Assembly: GCA_011525385.1 (NCBI GenBank)
Contig: WTGF01000094.1
Coordinates: 1 to 64,000 of the forward strand
From: Chloroflexota bacterium
GTDB lineage: Bacteria; Chloroflexota; Anaerolineae; Aggregatilineales; Phototrophicaceae
Reading direction: 5' to 3'
DNA length: 64,000 bases
A model generated the notes under the pieces. That model saw nothing but the letters and a program-made list of their open reading frames with translations. It was not told the DNA's origin and made no database searches. Below are positions 19,955 through 45,948 of this stretch, piece by piece (positions within the stretch are counted from its first letter, which is position 1; every line of letters begins with the position of its first letter). A program made the position numbers and the translations under genes.

Positions 19955-20115
19955 TGCGCGACATGGCTAAAGAGGGGCGATTCCAGTGAATCGCTCCTTA
20001 TTGGGCTCGCCATGTCGCAAGCCGCCGCGCATTCCCCCAGCCGGAATACAGTGAAGCGATGGTCCCGCTTCTTGTCAGAGCTTTTGCTCCTTGTCTCATG
20101 TATATGTTTTGTAAA

Positions 20116-21285
20116 CTAATGCTGAGGCACCGGCAGAGTTACTAGCAACTGTTTCGATTCAAGGTTCCATATCCACAGTCTGCCATCTGGACCGATTGAC
20201 ACCATTAACTCGCCATTTGGGTAGATTGCTGCCGCCCGGCCGGGATATTCGGTGATTTCAAAGTTGCTTTTGATATTCCATACGGCGATTCCAGATTCTC
20301 CGCTCCCAATCATGAACCCACCATTCAAAGTAAATGACGCTGGAGTATAGGCATAATTCAAGGCCTCAATTACGGGCTCGTCGGTCGCCATATTCCAAAC
20401 CCATGTCCATTCCTCGAACAGACACTTGTAGACTAACAAGAGAAGGGAATTATTGTAGCTAAATCGCAATCTATTCCGGGCTCCGCAGTCGGGCTCGCTA
20501 GTCAGCTTGCTGGTTTTCAATGCCCATGTATCGGTCTCGTAAACCAGTACCTTTACTTTACCTGTCATGAACAAATCCGCTGTTACGACGGCAAACAAGG
20601 TGCCATCTGGGCTGAAGGCACCTGTTCTGCCATGCTCTGTCAAGTTTGCCAGCGACTGCCCGAGACCGTTTTCAATATCAAACTCGTAAATGTGTGCGTT
20701 GTCGCTTGGTCCCGACCATCTCGCCAACTGGCTCCAATCGGGGCTTAGCCAAGTATAGTAAACCCGCTCTCTCCCACGTTGGGCATCAATTGCGTGGATT
20801 TGTTGGCCCGTATGTATATTCCATATCGACATCTTGCTGTCCCTAAACCACCAGTCACTAAAGGTCATGACATAGTTACTGTCAGGGCTGAAAGAAGTCC
20901 GCCCAAAGTCAGTCGGCGGCTCTGTCGATGTTCTTTGGAGATCGAGGATGCTAAGGCCCTCCTCTATGTCGAAGATAGCCAACTCGGGCAAACTTGCCAC
21001 GGCAAGATAGCGATTATTCGGGCTAAAGATCATCCTTGCGCTACTCGCGATGCCTCCTCCCAGAAACCGAGGTGGCAGCAGGAGATTTTCCAGATCGTAA
21101 ACCCAGATTTCATGAGCCGCATTCGGATATTCGGTCCCCTTGACACCAGACTGTATAGCCAAGTACCGTCCGTTTTCGGACATGGCAATGGCTATGACTT
21201 GCCATGATGGAGCTTGTTCTTGCGCTTGACTTATGTGAAGACAACAGGCAAGCGACAGAAAAAAACACCGATCGCTAGAATCCAT
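20116..21285 (-). CDS. Module A1: secreted WD40-like beta-propeller protein
   Basis: Signal-peptide-like N-terminus, repeated FSPDxxxxxxxS and WDxxTG-type blades, C-term IWNLESKQLLVTLPVPQH. Confidence 0.75.
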   Translation of the reverse strand: MDSSDRCFFLSLACCLHISQAQEQAPSWQVIAIAMSENGRYLAIQSGVKGTEYPNAAHEIWVYDLENLLLPPRFLGGGIASSARMIFSPNNRYLAVASLPELAIFDIEEGLSILDLQRTSTEPPTDFGRTSFSPDSNYVMTFSDWWFRDSKMSIWNIHTGQQIHAIDAQRGRERVYYTWLSPDWSQLARWSGPSDNAHIYEFDIENGLGQSLANLTEHGRTGAFSPDGTLFAVVTADLFMTGKVKVLVYETDTWALKTSKLTSEPDCGARNRLRFSYNNSLLLLVYKCLFEEWTWVWNMATDEPVIEALNYAYTPASFTLNGGFMIGSGESGIAVWNIKSNFEITEYPGRAAAIYPNGELMVSIGPDGRLWIWNLESKQLLVTLPVPQH

Positions 21286-21312
21286 TTTTGTATGTGCATA
21301 GATACATCCTCT

Positions 21313-22806
21313 CTACGTACTCGATTCCGTACTTACGTAAAAGAGACCAGGGATTCTCTCCGGATCTATGTTTTCGCCGTATAGGCGCTCATCATTATTC
21401 TGAGACAGAGTGCTGCGTTCGGCATACCCAAAAAAGAAATGGACGAAATCGGGATCGCTTCGATAAGTTTGCAGCGCATCTGCCATCTCCCCTGGCTTTT
21501 TCGAGCCATAGTACACAATTGCTAAATCCAGGTGCTGATTATTGTGGTAGTCCTTGGTGTTCACGTACGGGAGCTTCTCCCCTGTTTCAGGGTGTATGTT
21601 ATTGGGGTCTGTCAGTCCTGTGTTCCCGGTTTTTCCTATGATGGCTTCGTCCTGAGTATCGATAATCTTGCCGGGATAGATGTGCTCGGTATTGATTTCG
21701 GATAGGTGACCATAGGCAATGAATATCCTTCCATCTTCCCGCCATTGTCCCGGACTATGGTTGGTGTCACTTGACAAACTTCGCATAATTGTTTCGTCTT
21801 CCAAGTATACTGACGCTGGAAAACTGATGACAACATAGTTTCCTAATGCTGTATCGTTGGATGCCGCTGGGACAACAAATTCCACTCTGACATCCGGACC
21901 AACTACAGGTGACTGCACTTGAAATGGTCTATATATATCGGTTATCTTGTTATAATCCTGTGAAATCACACCCGCTCCGCTTGCGTCGTACGGCGCGAAA
22001 GACATTTTGACCGGCACTTCTTCATCATCGGCTACGATCGATTGCAGTATATACTCCGTTGGAGTGGCAGTAAGATCTGGAGCATCAGTGGCGATGATTT
22101 GCGCAGATGTTTGTGTAGGATAGTTCTCACGCTCTACAAATGGAACGAGGTCAAATTCAGCGTCTGGATCTAAAGTGTAAATCCAGTATTCTTCGTTGTC
22201 TATTTCAATCAGATACGCTGCGTTACCCGAATCCGATGTTCGCAGATACCTAAATTGCGCTGGCGTGCCGGAGATTTCATAAGTCATGTGAGGTGAATCC
22301 ACACCTGGCACAAATGTTTCTTGCTTGTAGGCCCTCAGAATCCCTAAAACTTCTATCCCAATACTAGGCTGTTCCCTCGTGTTGTCCGCCAGGTCTTGCG
22401 CCGTCGTCTCGACCGGCGCCGAATCCGCTTGCGCCAACCTCTTATCCCAATCCGAGTGTCTGACTTCGTCAAGCAATTCCAACGCACGTCGATCAGATTC
22501 ATCGTCCAAGCCCGATCCCGCGAACTGGGACATATACTCAGCATATTGTTCCTTGGACGGCAAGCCATACTCTTTGACAACCACCAGGGCAACCCATGCC
22601 AGGTCATCATCCACTATGCTCAAGAGATAATCGATATGCTGTCTTTGCCCTTCGCTTACAGCTGTGTAGCCAGTCAAAGACGTCGATTCTTCCGGCTCGA
22701 AGTCCAGTAGTCCCGCTTCGCTGATATCGCGTATTCCTTCGTGCTCCGAGAAGCCGGCAATAGCTTGCCCGCCTGAATTTGCGGCGAGGGCGTAGCACTT
22801 ACTCAA
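21313..22806 (-). CDS. Module B1: N-terminally truncated copy of the B3-type protein with M23-like C-terminal domain
   Basis: ALAANSGGQAIAGFSEHEG...then GNYVVISFPASV, IAYGHLSEI, IIGKTGNTG, HLDLAIVY; only TTG start available. Confidence 0.65.
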   Translation of the reverse strand: MSKCYALAANSGGQAIAGFSEHEGIRDISEAGLLDFEPEESTSLTGYTAVSEGQRQHIDYLLSIVDDDLAWVALVVVKEYGLPSKEQYAEYMSQFAGSGLDDESDRRALELLDEVRHSDWDKRLAQADSAPVETTAQDLADNTREQPSIGIEVLGILRAYKQETFVPGVDSPHMTYEISGTPAQFRYLRTSDSGNAAYLIEIDNEEYWIYTLDPDAEFDLVPFVERENYPTQTSAQIIATDAPDLTATPTEYILQSIVADDEEVPVKMSFAPYDASGAGVISQDYNKITDIYRPFQVQSPVVGPDVRVEFVVPAASNDTALGNYVVISFPASVYLEDETIMRSLSSDTNHSPGQWREDGRIFIAYGHLSEINTEHIYPGKIIDTQDEAIIGKTGNTGLTDPNNIHPETGEKLPYVNTKDYHNNQHLDLAIVYYGSKKPGEMADALQTYRSDPDFVHFFFGYAERSTLSQNNDERLYGENIDPERIPGLFYVSTESST

Positions 22807-22834
22807 GCCTAGGAATCGTGATCACCTTTTGTCT

Positions 22835-22945
22835 AAACATCCAGTTGATTTGTGAATCAGCGAGATGAGGCTCGCCCTGTCGCAAGCCGCCGCGCGTCTC
22901 CCTGCCGGATTACGGTAAAGCGGATGGTCCCGCCTCAAATGAATG
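22835..22945 (-). repeat. Leader element E2 (hybrid hairpin)
   Basis: GGGAGACGCGCGGCGGCTTGCGACAGGGCGAGCCTCATCTCGC + TTCACA + TGGATGTTTAG on minus strand. Confidence 0.75.
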
Positions 22946-22959
22946 AACCAGCGTTTGTA

Positions 22960-24156: not shown

Positions 24157-24166
24157 CAATTGCTTC

Positions 24167-24685
24167 CTACCTGAGCATTGCCGCCAACTGCAAGAACCAA
24201 CGCTCAGTCTCTTCAAATGGGCTATTGGGATCAAAATCGAAGCTCGCCTCCTGCTTTGTGATGGAACGATCGTCGGCAAACCAGGTTTCGTCAACCAGAT
24301 CGTAGCGCACCCAGTTTACGCCGTTTATGCCAACAGCGTTCCAGAGATGAACGGCATCATCATTGTCATCTTTAGTGCGTCCATACAGGATGACCTCTGT
24401 GCCTTTCTGCAGGTAAGCGATTTTCTTCCCTTTGTCCGAAGGAATTGATCGGACGACAGCACCCCTCTTGGGTTCAATCGTTCCAATCCCGATGACCGGC
24501 GGCAGCATATCTTCTTCGGCGAAGAATCTCATCACATTGGGATCATCAAGCGCATTATGGACAATCGCATTTCGGATCGCCACATCCATATTCTGGTCCA
24601 TAAACTGCTGCCAGTTCAGACCTGCCTGGTCCGGCGTGAAGCCATACAGTCCCCCGGTGCTTTGATGGTAAAACCAGTTTAGCAC
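24167..24685 (-). CDS. Module D1: SH3b-like domain protein; frame open upstream to 24865 without a canonical start
   Basis: ADAVLNWFYHQSTGGLYGFTPDQAGLNWQQFMD; SH3b-like region GAVVRSIPSDKGKKIAYLQKGTEVILYG. Confidence 0.6.
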   Translation of the reverse strand: MLNWFYHQSTGGLYGFTPDQAGLNWQQFMDQNMDVAIRNAIVHNALDDPNVMRFFAEEDMLPPVIGIGTIEPKRGAVVRSIPSDKGKKIAYLQKGTEVILYGRTKDDNDDAVHLWNAVGINGVNWVRYDLVDETWFADDRSITKQEASFDFDPNSPFEETERWFLQLAAMLR

Positions 24686-24889
24686 AGCATCGGCTGTGAT
24701 TTCATTTCTGCCAACCAGCCTATCATACGGAACGTCGTCCGGGTCATATACTTCCAGACTTTGTTGCAGTGATTGAATCTGCGTCGCGATATGCGGCGCC
24801 TTGTCAAAGATGAAATGATCTGGCGACGGCGCTCCGATCTGTTGATAGATCTGAGGCAGGGGTATAGCTCTTTCCTTTCTAAAGCATCA

Positions 24890-25025
24890 AAAGGATCTGT
24901 GAATGGGAGCCGCGCAGCTCGCCCTGTCGCAAGCCGCCGCGCATCTCCCTGCCGGAATACGGTAAAGCGGATGGTCCCGCTTGTTGTCAGTGCTTTTGCT
25001 TCTTATCTTATGTATATGTTTTGTA
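24890..25025 (-). repeat. Leader element E3
   Basis: Hairpin 24905-24949 GGGAGATGCGCGGC-GGCTTGCGACAGGGCGA-GCTGCGCGGCTCCC, then TTCACAGAT, TGATGCTTTAG. Confidence 0.8.
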
Positions 25026-25027
25026 AA

Positions 25028-26200
25028 CTAATGGCGAGGCACCGGCAGAGTTACTAACAACTGCTTCGATTTGATATTCCATATCGATACCCTGCCATCT
25101 GGAGCGATAGTCGCCATCAACTCGCTGTTGGGGTGGAGTTTAGGATCTTTACCCGGGTAGATAGTCAACTCAAAATCTCGTGGCACGTTCCAGACATGAA
25201 TCGATGAATTCTCTGGCGACAGACCAATGGTACTGGCAATTAAATGCTCATCGTCCAACGTAAATACAGGGTCAGCACTGAAAGTTTCAGCCAGGAAAAT
25301 CACTTCATTGGTCTCAAAATTCCAAACCGACACTGCTTTATCGGGACGACAACTGGCAGCAAGTAATGGTTTGCTGTGACTGAATCCAAAACGCACACCG
25401 AGATCGCCGCAGGGAGTTTTATGGTGCTGTATCTTGTTTTTCAAGGTCCATGTATAGGTCTCATATACTTGGACTTCACCTTCCCATGTTGCAAAAGCAA
25501 ATAATGAACCATCCGGGCTGAAGGCCGCTCCTGCATCTACCGCGGAGATGCCAACTAAAAGCTGACCCAGTCCCTGTTCAATATCAAATTCGTATATTAC
25601 GGCTAGTTCATGCCTTGACCAATCTACAAATTGAGTCCAGTCGGGACTTAGCCACGGACGCTGCACCCACTGCTGGGAGCGGAGAGCCGCAACAGCATGG
25701 ACTCGCTGACCGGTATGGACATTCCATATCGACATCTCATGATCATATGTCCACCAGTCGCTATAGGACATGATATAGTTACTATCTGGACTAAATGTAA
25801 TCCATTTGAAGTCAGTACGTAGCGCAGTGACTGAGTTCGGAAGGCCGAGGACCGTGACTTTGCTATCCGCGTTAAAGACCAATAATCTGTAATACCCACC
25901 GAGGGCAACGTACCGACTGTCTGGGCTAAAGACCATTCTAGCCTCAGGATCCAGCATTTCTCCCAGATATTGAGGCGGCAGCAGCAAATCCTCAAGATCA
26001 TAAATCCATATTCCATGATGGAACTCTCGGTGCCCTGGGATGTTCTCGCCATATTTCACGGCGAGATATCGCCCATTGTTTGACATCGAAATGGATATAG
26101 CCCGCCATGCAGCATCTTCTTGCGCCTGCAAGACATAGTGAAAGCAAGTTAGATAGAAAAGCAGGGCTGTGATGATTTGTACAGGTTTATTCCTGAGCAT
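25028..26200 (-). CDS. Module H1: secreted WD40-like protein
   Basis: MLRNKPVQIITALLFYLTCFHYVLQAQ signal peptide; FSPDSRYVALGG, C-term IWNIKSKQLLVTLPVPRH. Confidence 0.75.
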   Translation of the reverse strand: MLRNKPVQIITALLFYLTCFHYVLQAQEDAAWRAISISMSNNGRYLAVKYGENIPGHREFHHGIWIYDLEDLLLPPQYLGEMLDPEARMVFSPDSRYVALGGYYRLLVFNADSKVTVLGLPNSVTALRTDFKWITFSPDSNYIMSYSDWWTYDHEMSIWNVHTGQRVHAVAALRSQQWVQRPWLSPDWTQFVDWSRHELAVIYEFDIEQGLGQLLVGISAVDAGAAFSPDGSLFAFATWEGEVQVYETYTWTLKNKIQHHKTPCGDLGVRFGFSHSKPLLAASCRPDKAVSVWNFETNEVIFLAETFSADPVFTLDDEHLIASTIGLSPENSSIHVWNVPRDFELTIYPGKDPKLHPNSELMATIAPDGRVSIWNIKSKQLLVTLPVPRH

Positions 26201-27554
26201 AGAGACTCCTCCCTCTTGCGTCTTTAGCGAATTCTGATTCGTCAAGATGGGTCCAAACTCTTACCGGATCAATGTTTTCGGCATATAGCGTACGGTTCGG
26301 ATGAGGATCTGGATAGACAAAGTTGCTGCGTTGCGCGAATCCGAAGAGAGAGTTGGCATCTCTAGAAGGAGACAGTATTGCCATTGCAGTTTCCATTTGG
26401 TCTGTACCACTATCTTGTGACCCAACGTACACAATGGCCAGATCCAAATGATTAATCTGTGTTCCAGTGTTTCCAGTCACTCCTATTAGAGCGTTACTCT
26501 CAATTGACGCGCCTGGTTGAATATGGTCCTCAATTTTTGACAAGTGAGCAAATCCCATGAATATCCTGCCGTCCTCTTGCCAATTCCCAATCTTATGGTC
26601 GGGGTCTTCTGCCAACCTTTGCATAACGCCCTTGTGTGCTCGGAGGACGCTGGCGGGAAAGCTAATGACAACATAATTGCCTAGATCCTTGTGTCCTTCG
26701 GCGCGAATTTCAACTCTTACATCCGGTCCCACTGTAGGTGACTGAAGTTGAAATTCAAAAGTATCGTTGTGAGGATTTAGGTCGCGCGTGAGTATTCCTT
26801 TTCCACCGCTATCGACCCACAGTGAATGAGATAACTCGATATCCAAGGTTCCGCCCTCAGCTTCGTCGTTAACTACAAATGATTGTAGCAGAGGTGGAAT
26901 TGTTGCCGCTATCAGTGCGTTTTGAAAGTCGAATGAAGTGTTATCATAGCTTTGTCCAGATACTTGTACACGTCGTGAAGTGAATGGACTAGACGCTAAG
27001 TCAACTCGACGAAACTCTAGTTCAGCGTCGGAGTCTCTTAGATCAATCCAGAACTCACTTCCACCGAATTCGATCTTGACGGCGTAGGGATCTGAGTGGG
27101 ATTGGTCCAATACCCTTAATCTGGTTTCGTCAAATGAAAAAGACCAGTCAGGAATCGCCTCACTGCGAAGAACAGCTTCTTCATTTCCGTACAAGTTTAA
27201 ATTTCCTTTTACGTGCACCGCTACATATTGCTCTTCCTGCAGCATCATCCACTCCGGCGGATTGAGCCGGTCCATCCGCGTCTGCGCCCACGACCTGGCT
27301 TCCAACAGCGCATGTTCCTCCGCCGTCCCCGGAGCCACTTCATAACTGGCTTCCTCGGCGCGTATACGAATCATTCCGCGCGCGCCACGAACGTAGACAT
27401 ATTCGTAGCCTTGTGGCGTCACGACCATCAGCATCTCCGCGCCCGCCGCGAAAGCCGCGCGCAAGTCCGCCTCCGAGGCATCGCTGCCATTGGGATGATT
27501 ATGTATGAAGATCAGGTCGAGTCCCTTAAAGGCTTCGACCTCGTAATCCTGCAA
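26187..27554 (-). CDS. Module G1: truncated JAB/MPN-like N-terminus plus degenerate M23-like domain
   Basis: IFIHNHPNGSDASEADLRAAFAAGAEMLMVVTP (HxHP-x6-SxxD JAMM signature) and GNYVVISFPASV, FAHLSKI, LIGVTGNTG, HLDLAIVYVGS. Confidence 0.7.
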   Translation of the reverse strand: MQDYEVEAFKGLDLIFIHNHPNGSDASEADLRAAFAAGAEMLMVVTPQGYEYVYVRGARGMIRIRAEEASYEVAPGTAEEHALLEARSWAQTRMDRLNPPEWMMLQEEQYVAVHVKGNLNLYGNEEAVLRSEAIPDWSFSFDETRLRVLDQSHSDPYAVKIEFGGSEFWIDLRDSDAELEFRRVDLASSPFTSRRVQVSGQSYDNTSFDFQNALIAATIPPLLQSFVVNDEAEGGTLDIELSHSLWVDSGGKGILTRDLNPHNDTFEFQLQSPTVGPDVRVEIRAEGHKDLGNYVVISFPASVLRAHKGVMQRLAEDPDHKIGNWQEDGRIFMGFAHLSKIEDHIQPGASIESNALIGVTGNTGTQINHLDLAIVYVGSQDSGTDQMETAMAILSPSRDANSLFGFAQRSNFVYPDPHPNRTLYAENIDPVRVWTHLDESEFAKDARGRSLYAQE

Positions 27555-27607
27555 GCCTACATACTGCAGACCGTCAGCGCCTAGAACGCCATCATCTATC
27601 CTCGCTA

Positions 27608-27755: not shown

Positions 27756-28957
27756 TAATGGCGAGGCACCGGCAGAGTTACTAGCAACTGTTTCGATTTG
27801 ATATTCCATATCCATACCTTGCCATCTGGACCGATAGTCGCCATTAGTTCTCCATTAGGATGAACTTGCGGATTGGTTCCCGGATAGACCGACGTTTCAA
27901 AATTGTCTTTCGCATCCCAGACAATGATCTCAGAATATGCAGATACTCGGCCAAGCAATCCAGCTACCAAAACACCATCATCTTGAGTGATATATCTGAA
28001 TTGTCCTGATCTTTCGGTTTGAAGCAGCAGTGCGCCAGTTTCGATATCCCAAACGAGCAACCGATTACATTCGTAAATCAACCATGGATTAATATGTCCA
28101 AAAGCCAGGGTTACATCCGCTCCGCCACAGGAATGTTCGCCGAGGACTTGTATGAACGACAATTCCCAAGTGTCTGTCCGATACACCTTTATCTCGCCAT
28201 CCGGAATCACCAGCCCAAACAGGGAACTATCCGGGCTGAAAGCGATGCCTCGTACATCGATTGTGTCGATCGGAACGACGCCAAGAGGTGAGCCAAGCCC
28301 CTGTTGGACATCAAACGCGCGCAATTGTACGCCCTCAGGATGCCACCAATCCAGAAACTGTCGCCAATCAGGACTTAGCTTGGGGAGTTGCCAGGACTGC
28401 CCGACTCGTTCAGCGGGAATAGACAGGATTCGCGACCCCGTGTCAATATCCCATATCGACAATTCATGATCCCTTGTTGCCCACCAGTCGCTCAAGAACA
28501 TGATGGACAAACCATCAGCGCTAAAAGAGATCGTACTTAGGTCTAATGGTTTTTCGGTTGCAGTTCGCTGCATGTCGAGTATTAGAGAGTTATCTCCTAA
28601 ATTGAAAATCTCTAATCGTTCGTATTCAGCAAGCGAGATATATCGACTGTCAGGGCTAATAGCTATATAGGTGTCGGAAAAGCTTGTTCCCCGAAGGTAG
28701 CGCGGCGGGGACAAAAGGTCGTCAAGATCGTATATCCATACTCCGCTATCGTAGCCCGATTCGTCTCTGTCTTCTTTCTTCACATAAGCGCCATACTTGA
28801 CGGCCATATGCTGACCAGCGTTGGACATTAAGATCTTGACGGCTTCCCAAGGGACCCGTTCTTGCGCCTGTACCAGATAGGGCAGGCATGCGAGGAAACA
28901 GACTAGAATCGCTATGGTGTATGCTCGATTATTCATCTTCAAAGTAAATACTGTCAT
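27755..28957 (-). CDS. Module A2: secreted WD40-like protein
   Basis: MNNRAYTIAILVCFLACLPYLVQAQ; beta-propeller blades; LLVTLPVPRH end. Confidence 0.75.
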   Translation of the reverse strand: MTVFTLKMNNRAYTIAILVCFLACLPYLVQAQERVPWEAVKILMSNAGQHMAVKYGAYVKKEDRDESGYDSGVWIYDLDDLLSPPRYLRGTSFSDTYIAISPDSRYISLAEYERLEIFNLGDNSLILDMQRTATEKPLDLSTISFSADGLSIMFLSDWWATRDHELSIWDIDTGSRILSIPAERVGQSWQLPKLSPDWRQFLDWWHPEGVQLRAFDVQQGLGSPLGVVPIDTIDVRGIAFSPDSSLFGLVIPDGEIKVYRTDTWELSFIQVLGEHSCGGADVTLAFGHINPWLIYECNRLLVWDIETGALLLQTERSGQFRYITQDDGVLVAGLLGRVSAYSEIIVWDAKDNFETSVYPGTNPQVHPNGELMATIGPDGKVWIWNIKSKQLLVTLPVPRH

Positions 28958-30509
28958 TCGGATCTCCGTCTTTGTTAAAGTATTGAGCGAGTCTAAAAGT
29001 GTCAAGTTCGGGGTGAGTCCTCGCGGTGTCGAGATTTTCAATGTACAAGATAGAATTGCCGTTTGGGAAAAGCTGGCTCGCTGCAGCTAAACTGAAAAAG
29101 TGCTCGACAGATTGGGAGTTTTCATCTACATACTTTCCCCTTAGCCAATCCAGTTTGCTGTCTAACGCACCGCTACCTGGTTCACTTGAACCAACGTACA
29201 GCTCAAGCAAATCCAAGTGATGGTATTTTATGTACTTTCCTGTATTGCCAGTTTTACCGATGAGTGATTTGTCTGCATCATTAATGACTTGCCCGGGAAC
29301 AATATGGGGTTCGATACGGGATAAGTGCGCGTACGCTATCATTATCCTGCCGCCTTCCTGCCAACGTTCAGGATTATGTTCTGTTAAGCGCGACATACGC
29401 CGCATTCTCGCACGCTCATCTTCCGTCAGATGATTCGCCAGACTTCGGTTCCACAAACGCTGCGACGCCAAATTCTGCATCTCTAATTGGTGCATGATCT
29501 CCGGGTCTGATAGGTATACCGACGCCGGAAAACTTATCACAACATAATTGCCTAAACTTGATTCAGGATTCGATTCAGCTCGAATAACCAGTTCGACTCT
29601 CACATCAGGTCCAATTACGGGTGACTGCACCTCAAATTCAGTATTCGTCCTGGTATTGTAATCACGTGTTAGCGTACCTAATTGGCTTAGGGTCCTATCT
29701 GCATAGACTCTATACGATATTTCGACATCTTCCGTTTCGGTATCTTCACCAGGAACAATAGACTGTCTTTCGTAGTCTGTAGAATAACCGCTGGCGACGA
29801 CTTGCTTGGTGGTATGTGGATACTGATCCTCATTCTCTACAAATGGAACGAGGACAATTTCAGCGTCTGGATCAAAAGTGTCTATCCAGTATTCTTCGTT
29901 GTCTATTTCAATCAGATACGCTGCGTTACCCGAATCCGATGTTCGCAGATACCTAAATTGCGCTGGCGTGCCGGAGATTTCATAAGTCATGTGAGGTGAA
30001 TCCACACCTGGCACAAATGTTTCTTGCTTGTAGGCCCTCAGAATCCCTAAAACTTCTATCCCAATACTAGGCTGTTCCCTCGTGTTGTCCGCCAGGTCTT
30101 GCGCCGTCGTCTCGACCGGCGCCGAATCCGCTTGCGCCAACCTCTTATCCCAATCCGAGTGTCTGACTTCGTCAAGCAATTCCAACGCACGTCGATCAGA
30201 TTCATCGTCCAAGCCCGATCCCGCGAACTGGGACATATACTCAGCGTACTGTTCCTTGGACGGCAGGCCATACTCTTTGATAACCACCAGGGCAACCCAT
30301 GCCAAGTCATCATCCACTGTGCTCAAGAGATAATCGATATGCTGCCTTTGTCCTTCGCTTACAGCTGTGTAGCCGGTCAAAGAAGTCGCTTCCTCCGGCT
30401 CGAAGTCTATCAGTCCCGCTTCGCTGATATCGCGTATTCCTTCGTGTTCCGAGAAGCCGGCAATAGCTTGCCCGCCTGAATTTGCGGCGAGGGCGTAGCA
30501 CTTACTCAA
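28929..30509 (-). CDS. Module B2: N-terminally truncated B-type protein with M23-like domain
   Basis: N-terminal ~220 aa almost identical to B1 and to the interior of B3; GNYVVISFPASVYLSDPEIM, IAYAHLSRI, LIGKTGNTG, HHLDLLELYVGSS. Confidence 0.65.
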   Translation of the reverse strand: MSKCYALAANSGGQAIAGFSEHEGIRDISEAGLIDFEPEEATSLTGYTAVSEGQRQHIDYLLSTVDDDLAWVALVVIKEYGLPSKEQYAEYMSQFAGSGLDDESDRRALELLDEVRHSDWDKRLAQADSAPVETTAQDLADNTREQPSIGIEVLGILRAYKQETFVPGVDSPHMTYEISGTPAQFRYLRTSDSGNAAYLIEIDNEEYWIDTFDPDAEIVLVPFVENEDQYPHTTKQVVASGYSTDYERQSIVPGEDTETEDVEISYRVYADRTLSQLGTLTRDYNTRTNTEFEVQSPVIGPDVRVELVIRAESNPESSLGNYVVISFPASVYLSDPEIMHQLEMQNLASQRLWNRSLANHLTEDERARMRRMSRLTEHNPERWQEGGRIMIAYAHLSRIEPHIVPGQVINDADKSLIGKTGNTGKYIKYHHLDLLELYVGSSEPGSGALDSKLDWLRGKYVDENSQSVEHFFSLAAASQLFPNGNSILYIENLDTARTHPELDTFRLAQYFNKDGDPNDSIYFEDE

Positions 30510-30529
30510 GCCTAGGAATCGTGATCACC

Positions 30530-30704: not shown

Positions 30705-31796
30705 TTACTGGGGTTGGTGAATGATCCACAAACCCCAGCCAAAGCTGCCGCCGGTAAACAGGAGACGCCCATCTGGATTGAACCGAATGATTTCTCCCCG
30801 AACAGGGGGCTCTGTAAAATCCAATTGCGGGATGTATATTTCCGCGTCCGCAGCCAAGTCCCAAGCGCGAATTTGACCGCAATCATCTGTTGTCATCAGC
30901 AGGCTCCCATCCGGGCTGATATCGCCATCGTTGATGAAACAATAACGCCTGCCAGCATTGGGTTCCAGCTTGCGAAGGAAATCCAGGCGCTTGTCAACAA
31001 GCGACCAGCGGTTGACAGAGGCATAGGAAATGACAAGCAAATGCGAGTCGTCGTCTGTAAAGCGCAGCACTTGGGCCGAGTCCGCAGATAAGGGACGCGG
31101 CTCCCAGGCTTCCCACGTGTCTGTATGCCAAATGCCGAGCATCCCGCTCCCGGCCGCGGCCAGGAGCTGACCGTCGCTGGAAAAAGCCAGGGCGTTGAAA
31201 TCCTGAAGTTCGTTCGCCTGCAACTGTATTTCTGCAACAGTCTGCGATTCTAGATCAACTCGAATCAGCTTCCGATGATCCGTGACGACAAGCAGCCACT
31301 CGTGGCTTGGATGAAGCAAGACCTCAGTGACCCATCCGCCGTTGACCCAATCGTCGCTGATCTGAAGATCAAGCAGGAACTTATCTTGCTCCAAGTCCCA
31401 AAACTCAAGCTTGCCAATTGTTGTCCCAATGACGGCTTTATCCGATGTGACAGCCAGTTTTGTATAGGTGTGGTTGAACCTGAGCGGTTCCTTCTTTCCG
31501 GTGAATGTAGCATACCCATTAACGTATTCCAGTCGCCAGATATCCACGTAGTCTGGTATCGCCCTACGGCCTGAAATCAGCGCGAGCAATGGTTCGGTTT
31601 TATGCCAGCTCGCCTCGAGATAGCCTTCGCCATCTATGCCTACCGTGTTATGGGTATGATGGACGTTATCGGCGGAAAAGGCCGGACCCGGCACACAAGT
31701 CTCATAATCCCAGCGAAAGCACATCAATTCATCGTGCGCGGAGCTGATGCAGTGGAGAAACAGAAACACGAGCATGGCTGCCATCTTATTGAGCAT
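30705..31796 (-). CDS. Module C2: secreted WD40-like protein
   Basis: MLNKMAAMLVFLFLHCISSAH; FSSDGQLLAAAGSGMLGIWHT; GDISPDGSLLMTTDDCGQIRAWDL. Confidence 0.75.
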   Translation of the reverse strand: MLNKMAAMLVFLFLHCISSAHDELMCFRWDYETCVPGPAFSADNVHHTHNTVGIDGEGYLEASWHKTEPLLALISGRRAIPDYVDIWRLEYVNGYATFTGKKEPLRFNHTYTKLAVTSDKAVIGTTIGKLEFWDLEQDKFLLDLQISDDWVNGGWVTEVLLHPSHEWLLVVTDHRKLIRVDLESQTVAEIQLQANELQDFNALAFSSDGQLLAAAGSGMLGIWHTDTWEAWEPRPLSADSAQVLRFTDDDSHLLVISYASVNRWSLVDKRLDFLRKLEPNAGRRYCFINDGDISPDGSLLMTTDDCGQIRAWDLAADAEIYIPQLDFTEPPVRGEIIRFNPDGRLLFTGGSFGWGLWIIHQPQ

Positions 31797-33831: not shown

Positions 33832-35305
33832 AAATGCTATAGCCCTTCATATACTCAGCGATGCCTGATTCGTCAAGTTCAGGATGAAGTCTTGCTGAGT
33901 CCATGTTCTCAGCGTATAGAATGAAACGATTATTTGTCGGGTAAAGTTGGCTCCGTTCCACCAAGCCGAAGAAGTAGGAGACTGAATTAGATCCCTTCCT
34001 TTTGTATTCCGATCGCAGGATATTCAGTTCTGTCTCCATCGCGCCGCTACCTGGATTGCTAGAACCAACATACAGTATAGCTAAATCCAAATGATGTTGG
34101 TTTGTTCCAGATTTGCCTGTCAAGCCTATTATCGCCCGATCTCGACTATTAATCGTTTCTTCAGCATTTACATAGATTTTGGATAGGTGAGCAAATGCAT
34201 AGAATATCCTCCCGTCTTCGTGCCAACGATCAGGATTGTGATCAGCTATGCTCGCCATGCGCTCCATTTTCGAACGCTCTTCCTCCGTCAGATGCGGCGC
34301 CAGACTTTGATTATTCAAATGCGCGGCTGCCTGCCCTTGCATCGCCAATTGCTGCATGATCTCTTCGTCCGATTGATAAACAGACGCCGGGAAACTGATC
34401 ACGACGTAATTCCCCAGCGTTTCATGACCGCGAACTACAAACTCAACTCTCACATCTGGCCCAATTACCGGCGACTGTAATTGAAATGATTCATGGATTT
34501 TCTCTGGGTCATCTTCATCGGGAACATGATTATAGTCACGTGACAGCAATCCTCGCTTGGTCTTAGGATCATTGTCGCGTCCCGTTCTATCTGCCCACTC
34601 TTCATCGGATGTTTCGATATTCGACGATCCGCCATGTGCTCTCTCATCAGGAACGATAGGCAGTATCTCATAGCCCGATGGAGCGCCAGTGGCGACGACT
34701 TCCTCCATCGTTTTCGTAGAACTGTCGCCATGCTCCATAAGTGGAACAAAGGTCATTTCAGCGTCCGGGTCTGAGATGTCTACCCAGAATTTCCAGTCCC
34801 CTAATTCAATCCATACGGCATGAGGATTCAACTGAGAATACCCAAATACCCTCAACGGCGGTGAATTGTCAGCAGCTATAACTGGCAGGAAGGGTGTGTC
34901 AACTCGGTCAAACAGCTCATCAGGGTAGAGTCTCAGGGTCCCAGAAACCTTTAGCCCAATAGTCGGAACGTATGGTTCTCGTTCCTCTTGCAGCATCATC
35001 CACTCCGGCGGATTAAGCCGATCCGCCTGCGTCTGCGCCCACGACCTGGCTTCCAACAGCGCATGTTCCTCCGCCGTCCCCGGAGCCACTTCATAACTGG
35101 CTTCCTCGGCGCGTATACGAATCATTCCGCGCGCGCCACGAACGTAGACATATTCGTAGCCTTGTGGCGTCACGACCATCAGCATCTCCGCGCCCGCCGC
35201 GAAAGCCGCGCGCAAGTCCGCCTCCGAGGCATCGCTGCCATTGGGATGATTATGTATGAAGATCAGGTCGAGTCCCTTAAAGGCTTCGACCTCGTAATCC
35301 TGCAA
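33821..35305 (-). CDS. Module G2: truncated JAB/MPN-like N-terminus plus degenerate M23-like domain
   Basis: N-terminus near-identical to G1; C-terminal GNYVVISFPASVYQS, FAHLSKI, IIGLTGKSG, HHLDLAILYVGSS. Confidence 0.7.
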   Translation of the reverse strand: MQDYEVEAFKGLDLIFIHNHPNGSDASEADLRAAFAAGAEMLMVVTPQGYEYVYVRGARGMIRIRAEEASYEVAPGTAEEHALLEARSWAQTQADRLNPPEWMMLQEEREPYVPTIGLKVSGTLRLYPDELFDRVDTPFLPVIAADNSPPLRVFGYSQLNPHAVWIELGDWKFWVDISDPDAEMTFVPLMEHGDSSTKTMEEVVATGAPSGYEILPIVPDERAHGGSSNIETSDEEWADRTGRDNDPKTKRGLLSRDYNHVPDEDDPEKIHESFQLQSPVIGPDVRVEFVVRGHETLGNYVVISFPASVYQSDEEIMQQLAMQGQAAAHLNNQSLAPHLTEEERSKMERMASIADHNPDRWHEDGRIFYAFAHLSKIYVNAEETINSRDRAIIGLTGKSGTNQHHLDLAILYVGSSNPGSGAMETELNILRSEYKRKGSNSVSYFFGLVERSQLYPTNNRFILYAENMDSARLHPELDESGIAEYMKGYSIYAQ

Positions 35306-35354
35306 GCCTACATACTGCAGACCGTCAGCGCCTAGAACGCCATCATCTATCCTC

Positions 35355-35505
35355 GCTAAAGCATCAAGTCGATCTGTGAATGGGAGCCGCGCAGCTCGCC
35401 CTGTCGCAAGCCGCGGCGCATCTCCCCCAGCCGGAATACAGTGAAGCGATGGTCCCGCTTCTTGTCAGTGCTTTTGCTTCTTATCTTATGTATATGTTTT
35501 GTAAA
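35355..35505 (-). repeat. Leader element E7
   Basis: Hairpin 35382-35426, near-identical to E4. Confidence 0.8.
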
Positions 35506-36717
35506 CTAATGGCGAGGCACCGGCAGAGTTACTAGCAACTGTTTCGATTTGATATTCCATATCCATACCTTGCCATCAGGACCGATAGCAACCATTAACT
35601 CGCTGTTGGGGTGGATTTGCGGATTTATTCCCGGATAGACCGACATCTCAAAATCGTTTTTTGCATCCCAGACTTCAATCGTAGAACCTCCAGGTAAATT
35701 GCCACTTTGAGTTACCAAAACTCTATCGTCTAGGGTGATGAATCTGATTCGCCCTGCTTCTTCGGATTGAAGCAGCAATGCGCCGGTTTCGATATCCCAA
35801 ACGAGTAATCGTCCGTACCAATCGCACTTGAAAATCAGCCAGGGATTAATATGTCCGAAAGCCAGGGTCACATCCGCATTGCCGCAGGAATGTGCGCCGA
35901 GCATCTGTACGTACGTCAATTCCCAAGTGTCTGTCCGAAAGATCCTTATCTCGTCATCCGGTGTCACGAGCGCAAACAGCGAACTATCCGGGCTGAAAGC
36001 GACGCCTCTTTCATCACGAATATCGACTGAAACAGAACCGAGAGTTGAGCCAAGCCCCTGTTGAATATCAAATTCATGTATCTGGATCCCGTCAGGATGC
36101 CACCAATCCAAAAACTGTCGCCAATCAGGACTTAACCGGGGGAGAGGTAACCTCGACTGCGCAGCTCGTGCTGAGGGAATAGTCAGTATTCGCGCCCCCG
36201 CGCCAATATCCCATATCGACATTTCATGATCGTCCGTTGCCCACCAGTCGCTTAAGGACATGATGAACTTACCATCCGCGCTATAAGAGACCGTACTGAA
36301 GTCCGAAGCTATTTCGGTAGCAGTACTCGGCAGGTCAAGTATTGGGGTGTTTTCTGCTATGTTGAAAATCTGCAATCGGTGATGTTCGGCGAGTGAGATA
36401 TGCCGGCTGTCAGGACTGAAAGCTATTAAGGTTCCGTAAAATTCTGCCCCCCGAAGATGACGCGGTGGGGATAAAAGATCGTTAAGATTGTATATCCATA
36501 CGCCGCTATCGTAACCCGACTCATTCCTATCTTCTTTCTCCACATGAGCACCATATTTTACGGCTAAACGCCGTCCATCGTTGGATATTGAGATTGAGAC
36601 AGCTTCCCAAGGATCCTGTTCTTGCGTCTGTATCCGATAGGGCAAACATGCAAGGAAACAGACTAAAAGCGCAAAAATGTATGCTCGATTATTCATCTTC
36701 AAAGTAGATGCTGGCAT
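35506..36717 (-). CDS. Module A3: secreted WD40-like protein
   Basis: MNNRAYIFALLVCFLACLPYRIQTQ; propeller blades; LLVTLPVPRH. Confidence 0.75.
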   Translation of the reverse strand: MPASTLKMNNRAYIFALLVCFLACLPYRIQTQEQDPWEAVSISISNDGRRLAVKYGAHVEKEDRNESGYDSGVWIYNLNDLLSPPRHLRGAEFYGTLIAFSPDSRHISLAEHHRLQIFNIAENTPILDLPSTATEIASDFSTVSYSADGKFIMSLSDWWATDDHEMSIWDIGAGARILTIPSARAAQSRLPLPRLSPDWRQFLDWWHPDGIQIHEFDIQQGLGSTLGSVSVDIRDERGVAFSPDSSLFALVTPDDEIRIFRTDTWELTYVQMLGAHSCGNADVTLAFGHINPWLIFKCDWYGRLLVWDIETGALLLQSEEAGRIRFITLDDRVLVTQSGNLPGGSTIEVWDAKNDFEMSVYPGINPQIHPNSELMVAIGPDGKVWIWNIKSKQLLVTLPVPRH

Positions 36718-38575
36718 TCGGATCTCCTCCGCTGGTAGGAAACTCAGCAATTCTGAATTCGTCAAGTTCTGGGTGGATCCTTGCGGATTCAAGGTTTTCA
36801 GCGTATAGGACAGAAACACCATTCGGGTAAAGCTGGCTCATTTGAGCTAAATCGAAAAAGTATTCTACAGACCGGGAACCCGTATCTTCAAATCTCTTCC
36901 GTTTGTCATTCAGAATTTCTTCCATTGCGCCGCTACCGGGTTGGCTTGAGCCAATGTAAAGGATTGCCAAATCTAAATGATGCGTTATTCCTTCCTTGCC
37001 TGTGTTACCTGTCTTGCCGATTATAGCCTTGCTCTCACTATCAATGATTTCTCCGGCATTCACATAGATTTCGGATAGGTGAGCAAACGCATAGAATATC
37101 CGCCCGTCTTCGTGCCAGCGATCAGGATTGTGATCAACTGAATTTACAAGGCGCTCTTGGTCCGGCCGCTCAGCCCTTAAACGCTGCGCCGCTAGTCCCT
37201 GCCATTCCAATTGCCGCATAATCTCGTCGTTTGATTGGTAAACAAACGACGGGAAACTAATTACGACATAATTGCCCAAGTCCTTGTGACCAGTGACAAC
37301 AAACTCTACTCTTACATCTGGACCAATTACCGGCGACTGAAGTCTGAACGAGTTATAAATATCTCTTCTGCGGTTGTAATCACGCGTACGCACCCCCAAT
37401 TTACTGGTGGTTCTATCCGCCCAAGGTCTATCCGATATTTCAATATCCAACGGTCCGCCATGAGCTTTCTCATCAGGAATAATGGGCAGTATCTCATAGC
37501 CCGATGGAGCATCAGTGGCGATGATTTCCGCAGATGTTTGTGTAGGATAGTTCTCATTCTCTACAAATGGAACGAGGACAAATTCGGCGTCTGGATCAAA
37601 AGTGTCTATCCAGTATTCTTCGTTGTCTATTTCAATCAGATACGCTGCGTTACCCGAATCCGATGTTCGCAGATACCTAAATTGCGCTGGCGTGCCGGAG
37701 ATTTCATAAGTCATGTGAGGTGAATCCACACCTGGCACAAATGTTTCTTGCTTGTAGGCCCTCAGAATCCCTAAAACTTCTATCCCAATACTAGGCTGTT
37801 CCCTCGTGTTGTCCGCCAGGTCTTGCGCCGTCGTCTCGACCGGCGCCGAATCCGCTTGCGCCAACCTCTTATCCCAATCCGAGTGTCTGACTTCGTCAAG
37901 CAATTCCAACGCACGTCGATCAGATTCATCGTCCAAGCCCGATCCCGCGAACTGGGACATATACTCAGCGTACTGTTCTTTGGACGGCAGGCCATACTCT
38001 TTGATAACCGCCAAGGCAACCCATGCCAAGTCATCATCCACTATGTTCAAGAGATAATCGATATGCTGTCTTTGCCCTTCGCTTACAGCTGTGTAGCCGG
38101 TCAAAGAAGTCGCTTCCTCCGGCTCGAAATCTATCAGTCCCGCTTCGCTGATATCGCGTGTTCCTTCGTGCTCCGAGAAGCCGGCAATAGCTTGCTCGCC
38201 TGTACCGGCGGCGAGGGCGTCTCTCTTCTTCTTCTTCTTTTTGTCCTTGGGCTCACCAACTCCCGCCACCACATAATTGAAATCCTGGTTCAGCATGTTG
38301 TTCTGCTGGTGAGTCGTTGCAGGCGCCGGTTGGCTGTTTGGCGTCGTCGACGCTGGCGGTTTCGGCGCTGGTGGCGGACTATAACCCGGCGTTGGCGTGT
38401 AACCGGATATATCTATCCCTGGCGGCGGCGCCGGAAGATGCTCTGCTGGCGGCGCTGGCGGACTATAACCCGGCGTTGGTGTATAACCGGGTATATCTAT
38501 CCCCGGCGGCGGAGTTGGAGTTGGTTCTGGCTTTGGTTTTGGTGGCCTGTAACCGCCACCACCTTGCATTGGCAT
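36689..38575 (-). CDS. Module B3: full-length protein with Pro-rich PGYTPTPGYSPP repeats, K-rich linker, conserved B region and M23-like C-terminal domain
   Basis: ATG with AGAAAGGA RBS; MPMQGGGGYRPPKPKPEPTPTPPPGIDIPGYTPTPGYSPPAP...; FAHLSEIYVNAGEIIDSESKAIIGKTGNTGKEGITHHLDLAILYIGSS. Confidence 0.75.
   Translation of the reverse strand: MPMQGGGGYRPPKPKPEPTPTPPPGIDIPGYTPTPGYSPPAPPAEHLPAPPPGIDISGYTPTPGYSPPPAPKPPASTTPNSQPAPATTHQQNNMLNQDFNYVVAGVGEPKDKKKKKKRDALAAGTGEQAIAGFSEHEGTRDISEAGLIDFEPEEATSLTGYTAVSEGQRQHIDYLLNIVDDDLAWVALAVIKEYGLPSKEQYAEYMSQFAGSGLDDESDRRALELLDEVRHSDWDKRLAQADSAPVETTAQDLADNTREQPSIGIEVLGILRAYKQETFVPGVDSPHMTYEISGTPAQFRYLRTSDSGNAAYLIEIDNEEYWIDTFDPDAEFVLVPFVENENYPTQTSAEIIATDAPSGYEILPIIPDEKAHGGPLDIEISDRPWADRTTSKLGVRTRDYNRRRDIYNSFRLQSPVIGPDVRVEFVVTGHKDLGNYVVISFPSFVYQSNDEIMRQLEWQGLAAQRLRAERPDQERLVNSVDHNPDRWHEDGRIFYAFAHLSEIYVNAGEIIDSESKAIIGKTGNTGKEGITHHLDLAILYIGSSQPGSGAMEEILNDKRKRFEDTGSRSVEYFFDLAQMSQLYPNGVSVLYAENLESARIHPELDEFRIAEFPTSGGDPNASIYFEDE
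38373..38512 (-). repeat. Two in-frame repeats encoding PPPGID.xGYTPTPGYSPP
   Basis: GGACTATAACCCGGCGTTGG(C/T)GT(G/A)TAACCGG(A/G)TATATCTATCCC(T/C)GGCGGCGG present twice. Confidence 0.85.
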
Positions 38576-38685: not shown

Positions 38686-39123
38686 CTAGACCGCGCCCCA
38701 GGTCGGCGCTGTGCCCGTCGCCGGCTGCAAGGTCGCCGTGAACATCACCGCCCCGCCGGTCGTGATCTGCGGACGGTAGCTCGACACCAGGAACTCCCCG
38801 CTGTACTTGGGATCGTTCGTGGTCGGCGCCGCGTTGTTGCCCACCTGCACCTCCAGCGAGACCTGGCTCCCGGCCGCGAAGGCGCCCTGGATGACCGTGT
38901 GCGTGCCGGTGTCTGCGGTGGTCGTCAGATAACCCTGAATCGTCACCGGCGCCCGCAACTGCCCGTTGATATACTGGTGCACTTCGTCGCCGAAGCCGGT
39001 GACATCGAACTGGTCGTAGGTCAGTCCCAGGTCGATGCTGCGGATGTCCCCATCCGCGAAGGTACGCAAGGTACCGCTGCTGTCGTCCATCTTTACGATG
39101 ACGTGATCTCCTGACAATGCCAT
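38686..39123 (-). CDS. Phage tail tube-like protein
   Basis: MALSGDHVIVKMDDSSGTLRTF..DQFDVTGFGDEVHQYINGQLRAPVTIQGYLTTTAD.GTHTVIQGAF..GSQVSLEVQVG. Confidence 0.65.
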   Translation of the reverse strand: MALSGDHVIVKMDDSSGTLRTFADGDIRSIDLGLTYDQFDVTGFGDEVHQYINGQLRAPVTIQGYLTTTADTGTHTVIQGAFAAGSQVSLEVQVGNNAAPTTNDPKYSGEFLVSSYRPQITTGGAVMFTATLQPATGTAPTWGAV

Positions 39124-43874: not shown

Positions 43875-44360
43875 TTAGATCTCCCGTACCCAGAATTGGG
43901 CGTCAGGATATAGTATGAGTCCACGACCAGCGTGATTCCCTTTCCACTGTATTTTGAAGGTATGGGATCCAGCGCTTAAGCCCTGAATCAATCGGTCAAA
44001 AGACAGGGAATGACGGCGATCGCCGTGGTGAAGATCGATATGTGTAAGTCCATCGTCACCGCCTTGGCGAGTTCCGTCGACATCAATGTCGAAATGACAG
44101 CGGCTGACGCTAACATTACGTGTCATTGCACCGTCAAAATGAACCAGCACGTCTCCGCCTGTTGTCGTAATCGTCAGATTCAAGTTGGTGCTGTCAAGAT
44201 CGGAAAATTCATTACCGATTACTCTGATCTCCTCGGTCGTCGTGTAGATGGCGGTCGCCGGATTCTTAAGCGTCGCCAGGTTCTCGCCGACCTCGTTCAT
44301 ATCGCTGGCGGCAATCAGTTCTCCGGTCTCCCAATCCGTTTTGGGTGTCGTCCAAGCCAT
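43875..44360 (-). CDS. Array paralog 3
   Basis: MAWTTPKTDWETGELIAASDMNEVGENLATLK...AQFWVREI. Confidence 0.65.
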   Translation of the reverse strand: MAWTTPKTDWETGELIAASDMNEVGENLATLKNPATAIYTTTEEIRVIGNEFSDLDSTNLNLTITTTGGDVLVHFDGAMTRNVSVSRCHFDIDVDGTRQGGDDGLTHIDLHHGDRRHSLSFDRLIQGLSAGSHTFKIQWKGNHAGRGLILYPDAQFWVREI

Positions 44361-44567: not shown

Positions 44568-45026
44568 TTAGATCTCCCGCACCCAGAATTGGGCGCCAAT
44601 TCGCAATGTAGTTCCATACCTTGCTTGGAGTTTGAAAGTATGTGATCCGGCGCTAAGGTTTTGAATCAGGCGAGTAAAGCTCACAATGGGATTACGGTTC
44701 CAGCCGGTGCGCAAAATGCCATCGTCGGTACCACCATGTCGGACACCATCAACTTCGATATCAAAAGTACAATGCCCATCTGTCTGCGAACCATGAAAAT
44801 GAACCAGAACATCCCTACCTGTAGTGGTTATTGTCAAGTTCAGATTGTTGCTATCCACATCTTCAAACGTGCCATCATTTGGAAGACTTATCGCCTCTGT
44901 CGTGGTGTAGGCCGCTGCCGCAAGACCCTCCTTAAGCGCCACCAGATTTTCCCCGACCGCGTTCAGATCGCCGGGGCTCACCAGCTCCCCGACCTCCCAA
45001 TCCGTTTTGGGTGTTGTCCAAGCCAT
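44568..45026 (-). CDS. Array paralog 2
   Basis: MAWTTPKTDWEVGELVSPGDLNAVGENLVALK...AQFWVREI. Confidence 0.65.
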   Translation of the reverse strand: MAWTTPKTDWEVGELVSPGDLNAVGENLVALKEGLAAAAYTTTEAISLPNDGTFEDVDSNNLNLTITTTGRDVLVHFHGSQTDGHCTFDIEVDGVRHGGTDDGILRTGWNRNPIVSFTRLIQNLSAGSHTFKLQARYGTTLRIGAQFWVREI

Positions 45027-45109
45027 TGTATGACCTCCTTTTTCCGACTTTTGTCATTTCTCGTGTGTACTGGATTTGTCCTGCTCAACATCAAGCACTT
45101 TGTGAAATT

Positions 45110-45150
45110 GTCGCGCGGGCCTCGCCCTGTCACAAGCCGGTCCACAAGAC
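45110..45150 (-). repeat. Leader element E13 hairpin
   Basis: GTCTTGTGGACC..GGCTTGTGACAGGGCGA..GGCCCGCGCGAC. Confidence 0.75.
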
Positions 45151-45221
45151 ACAAGTGTGTGCTGCGTACTCTGTAATCTCCCAGTTCTCATTGTCTCTTG
45201 CGCGCTTCCTCCGCTGATCCC

Positions 45222-45710
45222 TTAAACCTCCTGTACACCGAATTGGGCGCCGGCACGAAACCTTACTCTCCCGCCCCCTTTCATCTGAAGCTTAAAAATA
45301 TGGGAGCCAGCGCTTAGATTCTGAATCAGGTAGGTAAAACTCACATTATGCGAATAGTTACGGTCAATTGTGAATCGTATGATTTCACCAACATCGCCAC
45401 CTTGCAGAACGCCATCGACATCAATATCAAAGTGGAGGTGCATACCTTTATTAGTATCATCGCGATATGCTGAGCTAGAAAAGTGTGCCAGTACATCCCT
45501 ACCAGAGGTCTCAATTGTCAGGTTGAAATTCTCGCTATCAACATCGGTAAATGTGCTTGAATTCCTAAGAATATCTTCTGTCGATCTACCAGCTGCTGCT
45601 GCTGGCGCCTGATTTCTCAACATCGCTAGATTCTCGCCAATCGCATTCAAATGAGCGGCGGTAATTAGTTCGCCGTCGGCCCAATCGGTCTTAGGTGTTG
45701 TCCTAGCCAT
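45222..45710 (-). CDS. Array paralog 1 (most diverged)
   Basis: MARTTPKTDWADGELITAAHLNAIGENLAMLRN...AQFGVQEV. Confidence 0.65.
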   Translation of the reverse strand: MARTTPKTDWADGELITAAHLNAIGENLAMLRNQAPAAAAGRSTEDILRNSSTFTDVDSENFNLTIETSGRDVLAHFSSSAYRDDTNKGMHLHFDIDVDGVLQGGDVGEIIRFTIDRNYSHNVSFTYLIQNLSAGSHIFKLQMKGGGRVRFRAGAQFGVQEV

Positions 45711-45792
45711 ACTTTTCTCCTTTCTTCAATCTTTGTTACTTTCTTGCATATAATGGACTTGCCCTGCTAAACATCAAGCACTTTGTGAAACT

Positions 45793-45832
45793 GTCCTGTG
45801 GATTTGCCCTGTCGCAAGCCAGCCCACAGGAC
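45793..45832 (-). repeat. Leader element E14 hairpin
   Basis: Perfect 9-bp stem GTCCTGTGG/CCACAGGAC around GGCTTGCGACAGGGC. Confidence 0.85.
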
Positions 45833-45948
45833 ACAAACGCGTCCTTCCGCAATTGAAATCAGTCCTCAGCGATCCTTTGATGATCTTCTCCTTTATCACT
45901 TCTAGTTTGATGATATGCACCAATAATAGCACGTTTGTGCTAATAAGC

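What the first reader, a model, noticed from the sequence alone, without database searches (positions are those of the whole stretch)
20000..45840. One leader element with a fixed loop and changing but mostly complementary stems precedes 13 transcription units in two unrelated gene arrays
On the minus strand nearly every unit from 45.8 to 22.8 kb is preceded by the same ~100-nt element. Its hairpin has loop GGCTTGYGACAGGGC(GA). Stem sequences differ but usually pair: GTCCTGTGG/CCACAGGAC (E11, E14), CGAGATGAGGC/GCCTCATCTCG (E5), GGGAG..GCGC/GCGC..CTCCC (E3, E4, E6, E7), ATGCGCAGC/GCTGCGCAT (E8). A further decayed copy (E1, ~20.0 kb, loop GACATGGC) closes the array. A constant loop with compensating stem changes suggests selection on a folded nucleic acid, either a cis-regulatory RNA/attenuator or a folded-ssDNA recombination site. 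I found no match to a known family from memory.
Basis: seen in the sequence. Interest (0 to 1): 0.9.

Follow-up and report, generated by a model that had tools for sequence, protein, structure and literature searches.

The report
Folded RNA leader on weapon genes
A genus of Chloroflexota bacteria (from sponges, to judge by the sample labels) places the same folded RNA tag in front of nearly every gene of a DNA-damage-controlled set of phage-tail-like and toxin-like genes, a new regulatory RNA family whose exact way of working is still to be tested.

Summary
The window holds 13 good copies plus one decayed one (E1), all on the minus strand. The genome holds 31, and 18 of 34 genomes of the genus carry it; I found none elsewhere. 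Over 131 distinct copies all 15 stem pairs show two-sided compensatory changes (535 such cells against 220 shuffled), around an almost invariant 15-nt loop and a conserved TTCACARA...TTGATG tail. Rfam has no match.

At least 108 of 132 distinct copies lie 80-152 nt (from the model's first position) before a start codon that has a Shine-Dalgarno sequence. First genes of units often carry an SOS box overlapping the -10; the same kind of box stands before recA. Copies inside operons, some only 6-22 nt after the previous stop codon, are conserved about as well, so each gene seems to carry its own element.

The genes are C1q/TNF-like receptor-binding heads, tail proteins, and modular proteins with variable M23 or AHH ends. 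Six of seven such units in the window (E2-E7) look like silent orphan modules.

Best reading: a new cis-acting mRNA leader acting after transcription, gene by gene. A put-like antiterminator is the main rival; attenuator and ssDNA recombination site are disfavoured. The loop-tail pseudoknot I tested is not supported.

The parts
45763..45838 (-). leader element E14, first of the receptor-binding-head operon
   Evidence: CM match 76.7 bits; SOS box upstream
45080..45156 (-). leader element E13 (internal)
   Evidence: CM match 71.2 bits
44415..44492 (-). leader element E12 (internal)
   Evidence: CM match 83.5 bits
43723..43798 (-). leader element E11 (internal)
   Evidence: CM match 62.5 bits
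43052..43129 (-). leader element E10 (internal)
   Evidence: CM match 74.6 bits
42385..42462 (-). leader element E9 (internal)
   Evidence: CM match 78 bits
38586..38665 (-). leader element E8, between the tail-protein stop codon and the toxin-like gene
   Evidence: CM match 76.7 bits; stop codon of 38686-39123 only ~20 nt upstream
35353..35430 (-). leader element E7, orphan module
   Evidence: CM match 73.5 bits
32513..32590 (-). leader element E6, orphan module
   Evidence: CM match 76 bits
30532..30609 (-). leader element E5, orphan module
   Evidence: CM match 73.2 bits
27602..27679 (-). leader element E4, duplicate of E7
   Evidence: CM match 73.5 bits
24876..24953 (-). leader element E3, duplicate of E6
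   Evidence: CM match 76 bits
22829..22906 (-). leader element E2, chimeric with broken stem
   Evidence: CM match 57.9 bits; arms from E3 and E5 types
20009..20023 (-). E1, decayed remnant (loop GGCTTGCGACATGGC)
   Evidence: pattern match only; not found by the CM
45923..45941 (-). SOS box overlapping the -10: AGCACAAACGTGCTATTAT
   Evidence: closely similar box (AGAACAAAAGTGCTATGAT) upstream of recA
45949..45964 (-). second palindrome GCGACTAAACAGTCGC, possible activator site
   Evidence: seen; same arrangement in other loci
45222..45710 (-). MARTTPKTDW protein, 162 aa, predicted C1q/TNF-like head
44568..45026 (-). MAWTTPKTDW protein, 152 aa (the one modelled)
43875..44360 (-). MAWTTPKTDW protein, 161 aa
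43205..43669 (-). MAWTTPKTDW protein, 154 aa
42540..42998 (-). MAWTTPKTDW protein, 152 aa
41855..42331 (-). MAWTTPKTDW protein, 158 aa
39166..41418 (-). phage major-tail-like protein with FN3 and tail-fibre J-like parts
38686..39123 (-). phage major-tail-like protein, 145 aa
   Evidence: phrog_10528, 2.2e-15
36689..38575 (-). full-length toxin-like protein: Pro-rich N-terminus, weak M23-like C-terminus
35506..36822 (-). WD40 protein, candidate immunity partner (inferred)
33821..35305 (-). orphan toxin-like C-terminal module, no proper in-frame start
31786..32322 (-). orphan C-terminal module with SH3
28929..30509 (-). orphan toxin-like C-terminal module
26187..27554 (-). orphan toxin-like C-terminal module
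24167..24685 (-). orphan C-terminal module
21313..22806 (-). orphan toxin-like C-terminal module

Best explanation
The element is a new structured mRNA leader: a hairpin of about 13-15 bp whose stem may drift as long as it pairs, an almost invariant 15-nt apical loop (GGCUUGUGACAGGGC), and a conserved single-stranded tail (AUUCACARAYC...UUGAUG) ending at or before the Shine-Dalgarno sequence. It marks each gene of a phage-tail/toxin-like gene set whose first promoters carry an SOS box. After DNA damage lifts LexA repression (inferred from the shared box), the leader most likely acts on the transcript, cistron by cistron: a trans-acting factor (RNA-binding protein, or possibly a small molecule) recognises the loop and tail and decides whether that cistron is translated or its mRNA is stabilised or processed. 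Shown: fold, conservation, position, SOS box, gene context. Inferred: RNA-level action, action after transcription, a trans factor, and the direction (on or off).
For: Covariation: all 15 stem pairs change on both sides, 535 double-change cells against 220 +- 15 shuffled, 83.4% paired against <=44% when slid; alignment-free arm swapping -21.3 against -12.6 +- 0.5 kcal/mol. 108 of 132 distinct copies have an SD-preceded ORF start 80-152 nt after the model start on the same strand, clustered at 83-92, 113 and 130-132. Internal copies lack an SOS box; at least 14 of them start 6-22 nt after the previous same-strand stop codon, leaving little room for a promoter, yet loop conservation does not differ significantly from promoter-proximal copies (35/51 against 39/48, p=0.17). 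No T-run follows the hairpin. In SOS-box copies the box and its -10 lie upstream, so the element would be transcribed.
Against: No transcript or expression data. The stem does not change predicted SD accessibility, so simple SD masking is not the mechanism. An excess of G-U over A-C mismatches, which would mark RNA on the sense strand, is only a trend (101 against 53 cells; 55 against 42 by cluster, p=0.22). No partner protein or ligand was identified. The comparison is underpowered. A distant, SOS-boxed single-copy relative of the head gene has no element, so the element is not needed for the SOS link.
Confidence: 0.52

Rival explanations
1. A put-like processive antiterminator: the nascent leader RNA binds RNA polymerase and lets it read through terminators in long phage-like operons.
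For: Phage-derived genes; hairpin transcribed soon after the promoter in many units; loop strongly conserved; class A (head-gene) leaders carry a second short hairpin CTGC/GCAG, and put RNAs are ~70 nt with two stem-loops (PMC9378689).
Against: Copies deep inside operons are conserved about as well as first ones, whereas one copy per transcript should suffice; no excess of terminators in the window arrays; the second hairpin is not evident in class B leaders.
Confidence: 0.2
2. An mRNA processing or stability site: the hairpin is cut or protected so that each cistron gets its own 5' end.
For: Occurs between cistrons, close behind stop codons; long stems with freely drifting sequence fit RNase III-type sites.
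Against: Such sites do not need a 15-nt invariant loop plus a conserved tail; no transcript ends known.
Confidence: 0.15
3. A folded single-stranded DNA recombination site (attC-like) that builds and shuffles the gene arrays.
For: Arrays of units; E2 is a chimera joined within the loop region.
Against: Only one clear arm-swapped copy (E2) among 133 unique arm pairs, nearly all others keep matching arms; no attC-type stem ends; element sits at set distances before start codons; stem types follow gene classes. The breakpoint scan was ungapped and inconclusive.
Confidence: 0.06
4. A metabolite-binding riboswitch (for example for a signalling nucleotide).
For: Aptamer-like: invariant loop, variable stem, 5' UTR position.
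Against: No Rfam match; no expression platform seen; repeated at nearly every cistron, unusual for riboswitches.
Confidence: 0.07

Closest known systems
HK022 put RNA (cis-acting antiterminator leader of a lambdoid phage)
   Same: Short structured nascent-RNA element in leaders of phage-type operons
   Different: put is two stem-loops placed once behind each early promoter; this one is repeated before individual cistrons, has one long drifting stem with an invariant loop, and lies in a Chloroflexota genus
Bacterial cis-regulatory RNA leaders (riboswitches, protein-binding leaders) of Rfam
   Same: 5'-UTR position, covarying stem, conserved loop near the SD
   Different: No Rfam family matches; many copies per genome, confined to one gene set
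SOS-controlled phage and tailocin gene sets
   Same: Promoters with an SOS box overlapping the -10; tail-like and hydrolase-like genes
   Different: Here a shared RNA leader is added to each gene
Polymorphic toxin systems with orphan modules (CDI/Rhs; PMC3150448, abstract only)
   Same: Constant N-terminal and middle parts, exchangeable C-terminal domain, following partner gene, downstream modules without starts
   Different: Each orphan keeps an RNA leader; partners here are WD40 proteins that look secreted; toxin and immunity roles are untested

Membership tests
Any Rfam 15 family | CM score at or above the gathering threshold | tested here: not met
   no hit at threshold, none credible below it
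Structured RNA family | compensatory base changes above chance in a defined stem | tested here: met
Loop-tail pseudoknot (TTGTGA/TCACAA) | compensatory changes between loop and tail | tested here: not met
   97% paired but only one-sided G-U changes; divergent genome G033 has loop TTATGA with tail TCACGA
Intrinsic-terminator attenuator | T-run directly after the hairpin | tested here: not met
   hairpin is followed by ATTCACARA or close variants
SD-masking thermosensor or switch | predicted structure changes SD accessibility | tested here: not met
   0.744 against 0.729 and 0.494 against 0.464 with the 5' arm scrambled
HK022 put RNA | two stem-loops | tested here: inconclusive
   class A has a second CTGC/GCAG hairpin, class B none evident
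HK022 put RNA | suppresses termination and pausing through RNA polymerase | not testable with these tools
   needs transcription assays
Integron attC site | conserved GTTRRRY / RYYYAAC ends of the fold | tested here: not met
   conserved columns lie in the loop and 3' tail; stem ends vary
Integron attC site | integrase gene in the same system | not tested
   no search with an integrase model was run
SOS gene set | operator shared with recA | tested here: met
   AGAACAAAAGTGCTA upstream of recA in G000 and G032; similar boxes before leader units
Polymorphic toxins | exchangeable C-terminal toxin domains with a following immunity gene | tested here: inconclusive
   M23 in 5 and AHH in 2 of 30; shared N-terminal/middle parts and orphan modules; activity and immunity untested

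The most novel reading that the evidence does not exclude
A bacterial symbiont genus uses one RNA tag as a second key on a dispersed weapon-like gene set: the SOS response opens transcription, and a dedicated factor that reads the tag licenses (or withholds) each cistron's translation, so that units copied or moved with their tag join the set automatically.
Probability: 0.3. Interest if true: 0.8.

Novelty: new variant of a known kind. Interest (0 to 1): 0.62.

Why it matters
Structured leaders are usually known from one or a few operons tied to metabolism. Here one undescribed RNA family marks up to 31 places per genome, nearly all examined ones belonging to phage-tail-derived and toxin-like genes, including cistrons inside operons and start-less orphan modules. 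It offers a sequence-defined way to find the members of such a gene set, and a tractable case for asking how a gene set scattered over a genome is controlled after transcription.

Tried and rejected
Pseudoknot between loop TTGTGA and tail TCACAA: looked perfect at first, but no compensating changes and contrary pairs in G033 and in the TTGCGA copies. SD sequestration: rejected by folding. Intrinsic terminator: no T-run. Known Rfam families: none. Recombination site: the breakpoint scan used ungapped extension and mostly stopped at indels, so it is inconclusive; rarity of arm-swapped stems is the better argument. The first arm-swap runs failed or were distorted by a bad tail search and are replaced. 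Strand test by G-U against A-C: weak trend only. Viral and phage origins: no element in viral contigs, no relative of a tail protein in viral contigs or of two tail proteins in the phage collection. Weak CM hits outside the genus (E 2e-4 to 7e-3) are taken as chance but were not inspected one by one. The genome-wide pattern scan used the exact loop and cannot see diverged relatives. Literature searches found nothing on this element. The simple gene caller behind one search also picks false ORFs on the opposite strand, so its strand tally was not used.

Full report
What is there. The loop GGCTTGYGACAGGGC occurs on the minus strand at 13 well-preserved elements plus one remnant (model search). 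In the same genome it recurs on contigs C15 (9 copies), C74, C82, C84, C98 (2) and C130. A covariance model (R1) finds 31 copies in this genome and 1-28 in 17 other genomes of the genus, with 16 of 34 having none. In 298 genomes of the class nothing outside the genus scores better than E = 2e-4. A scan of 84,980 species genomes with the exact loop plus tail gives 57 stretches, all from Chloroflexota assemblies; their sample labels suggest sponge symbionts, which is my inference. No match in viral contigs.

Structure. The alignment A2 (38 copies) and the model-fitted A3 (131 distinct copies) both give a 15-pair stem in which nearly every pair changes on both sides: 102 double-change cells against 40 +- 5 shuffled (counted together with the tested pseudoknot, which contributed none) and 535 against 220 +- 15, with slid controls far lower. 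A3 is fitted to the stem and leans towards it, and related copies count many times; the alignment-free arm-swap test is therefore useful: own arms pair at -21.3 kcal/mol against -12.6 +- 0.5 when exchanged, still p about 1e-4 with 10 cluster representatives. The loop and the tail TTCACARA are almost invariant. A pseudoknot between them, which I first suspected, is not supported: changes are one-sided, and the divergent genome G033 has loop TTATGA with tail TCACGA.

Position. 108 of 132 distinct copies have an SD-preceded ORF start 80-152 nt after the model start on the same strand, clustered at 83-92 nt (toxin-like genes), 113 nt, and 130-132 nt (MAWTTPKTDW genes). The rest are copies cut by locus ends, orphan modules, or genes that my simple rule missed. 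The hairpin is not followed by a T-run. Predicted SD accessibility does not depend on the stem.

Promoters. First elements of units often lie behind a palindrome such as AGAACATATATTCTATCAT or AGCACAAACGTGCTATTAT overlapping a -10. The same kind of box precedes recA in two genomes and a stand-alone LexA-type HTH gene, so I call it an SOS box; that LexA binds it is inferred. Many units also have a second palindrome GCGAC-N6-GTCGC just upstream. Elements inside operons lack the box; at least 14 start 6-22 nt after the previous same-strand stop codon, and their loops are not significantly less conserved (35/51 against 39/48 exact, p=0.17). This is the main reason for preferring an action on each cistron over a single action per transcript.

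Genes. The MAWTTPKTDW proteins have a helix and a C1q/TNF-like jelly-roll head (AlphaFold2 pLDDT 87.9; best Foldseek hits C1q heads, BclA and phage spike or receptor-binding proteins, E about 3e-5 to 4e-4, TM about 0.5). Neighbours match phage major and minor tail proteins. The other class has Pro-rich N-termini, shared middle parts and variable C-terminal parts, with M23 peptidase in 5 and AHH nuclease in 2 of 30, followed by small conserved genes or WD40 genes, several of which look to begin with signal peptides by eye. In the window one full-length copy (E8) is followed by six modules (E7-E2) whose first frame lacks a proper in-frame start, as in orphan modules of polymorphic toxins; toxin and immunity roles are inferred. 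A related single-copy head gene is found across the family (42 of 61 genomes have a match); the copy in this genome has an SOS box about 30 nt before its start and no element.

Judgement. A new, genus-confined structured leader RNA is well supported. How it acts is open: per-cistron control after transcription is my first choice, a put-like antiterminator second, processing or stability third. An intrinsic-terminator attenuator is excluded on anatomy and a folded-DNA recombination site is unlikely.

Noticed in passing
window 20116-38575: Array of WD40 genes, each behind a toxin-like C-terminal module; one full-length copy and six start-less orphan modules, with E7-E6-E5 duplicated as E4-E3-E2.
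   Followed up: partly
window 45949-45964; L127, L129, L135: Second palindrome GCGACTNNNNAGTCGC just upstream of the SOS box in many units, placed like an activator site; binding protein unknown.
   Followed up: no
L151 (G000:C72:24010-24272); L142:5454-5696: Stand-alone LexA-type DNA-binding proteins without a peptidase part; one has its own SOS box, the other lies directly upstream of an element-bearing operon.
   Followed up: partly
window 22829-22906: Element E2 is a chimera joined within the loop region, with the 5' arm of the E3 type and the 3' arm of the E5 type.
   Followed up: partly
window 46303-50655; L129:18482-22843: A ~1450 aa ORF (protein kinase domain in the window copy) lies directly upstream of the array here and in G032.
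   Followed up: no
L207:15867-16382 (G000:C81); Family-wide single-copy relative of the head gene; the copy in this genome has an SOS box and no leader element.
   Followed up: partly
L129:2800-2877, L129:8318-8395; window E2-E7: Several elements before orphan modules carry altered loops (GGCTTTCGACAGGGC, GGCTTGCGACAGGGC), possibly relaxed selection; the overall difference is not significant.
   Followed up: partly
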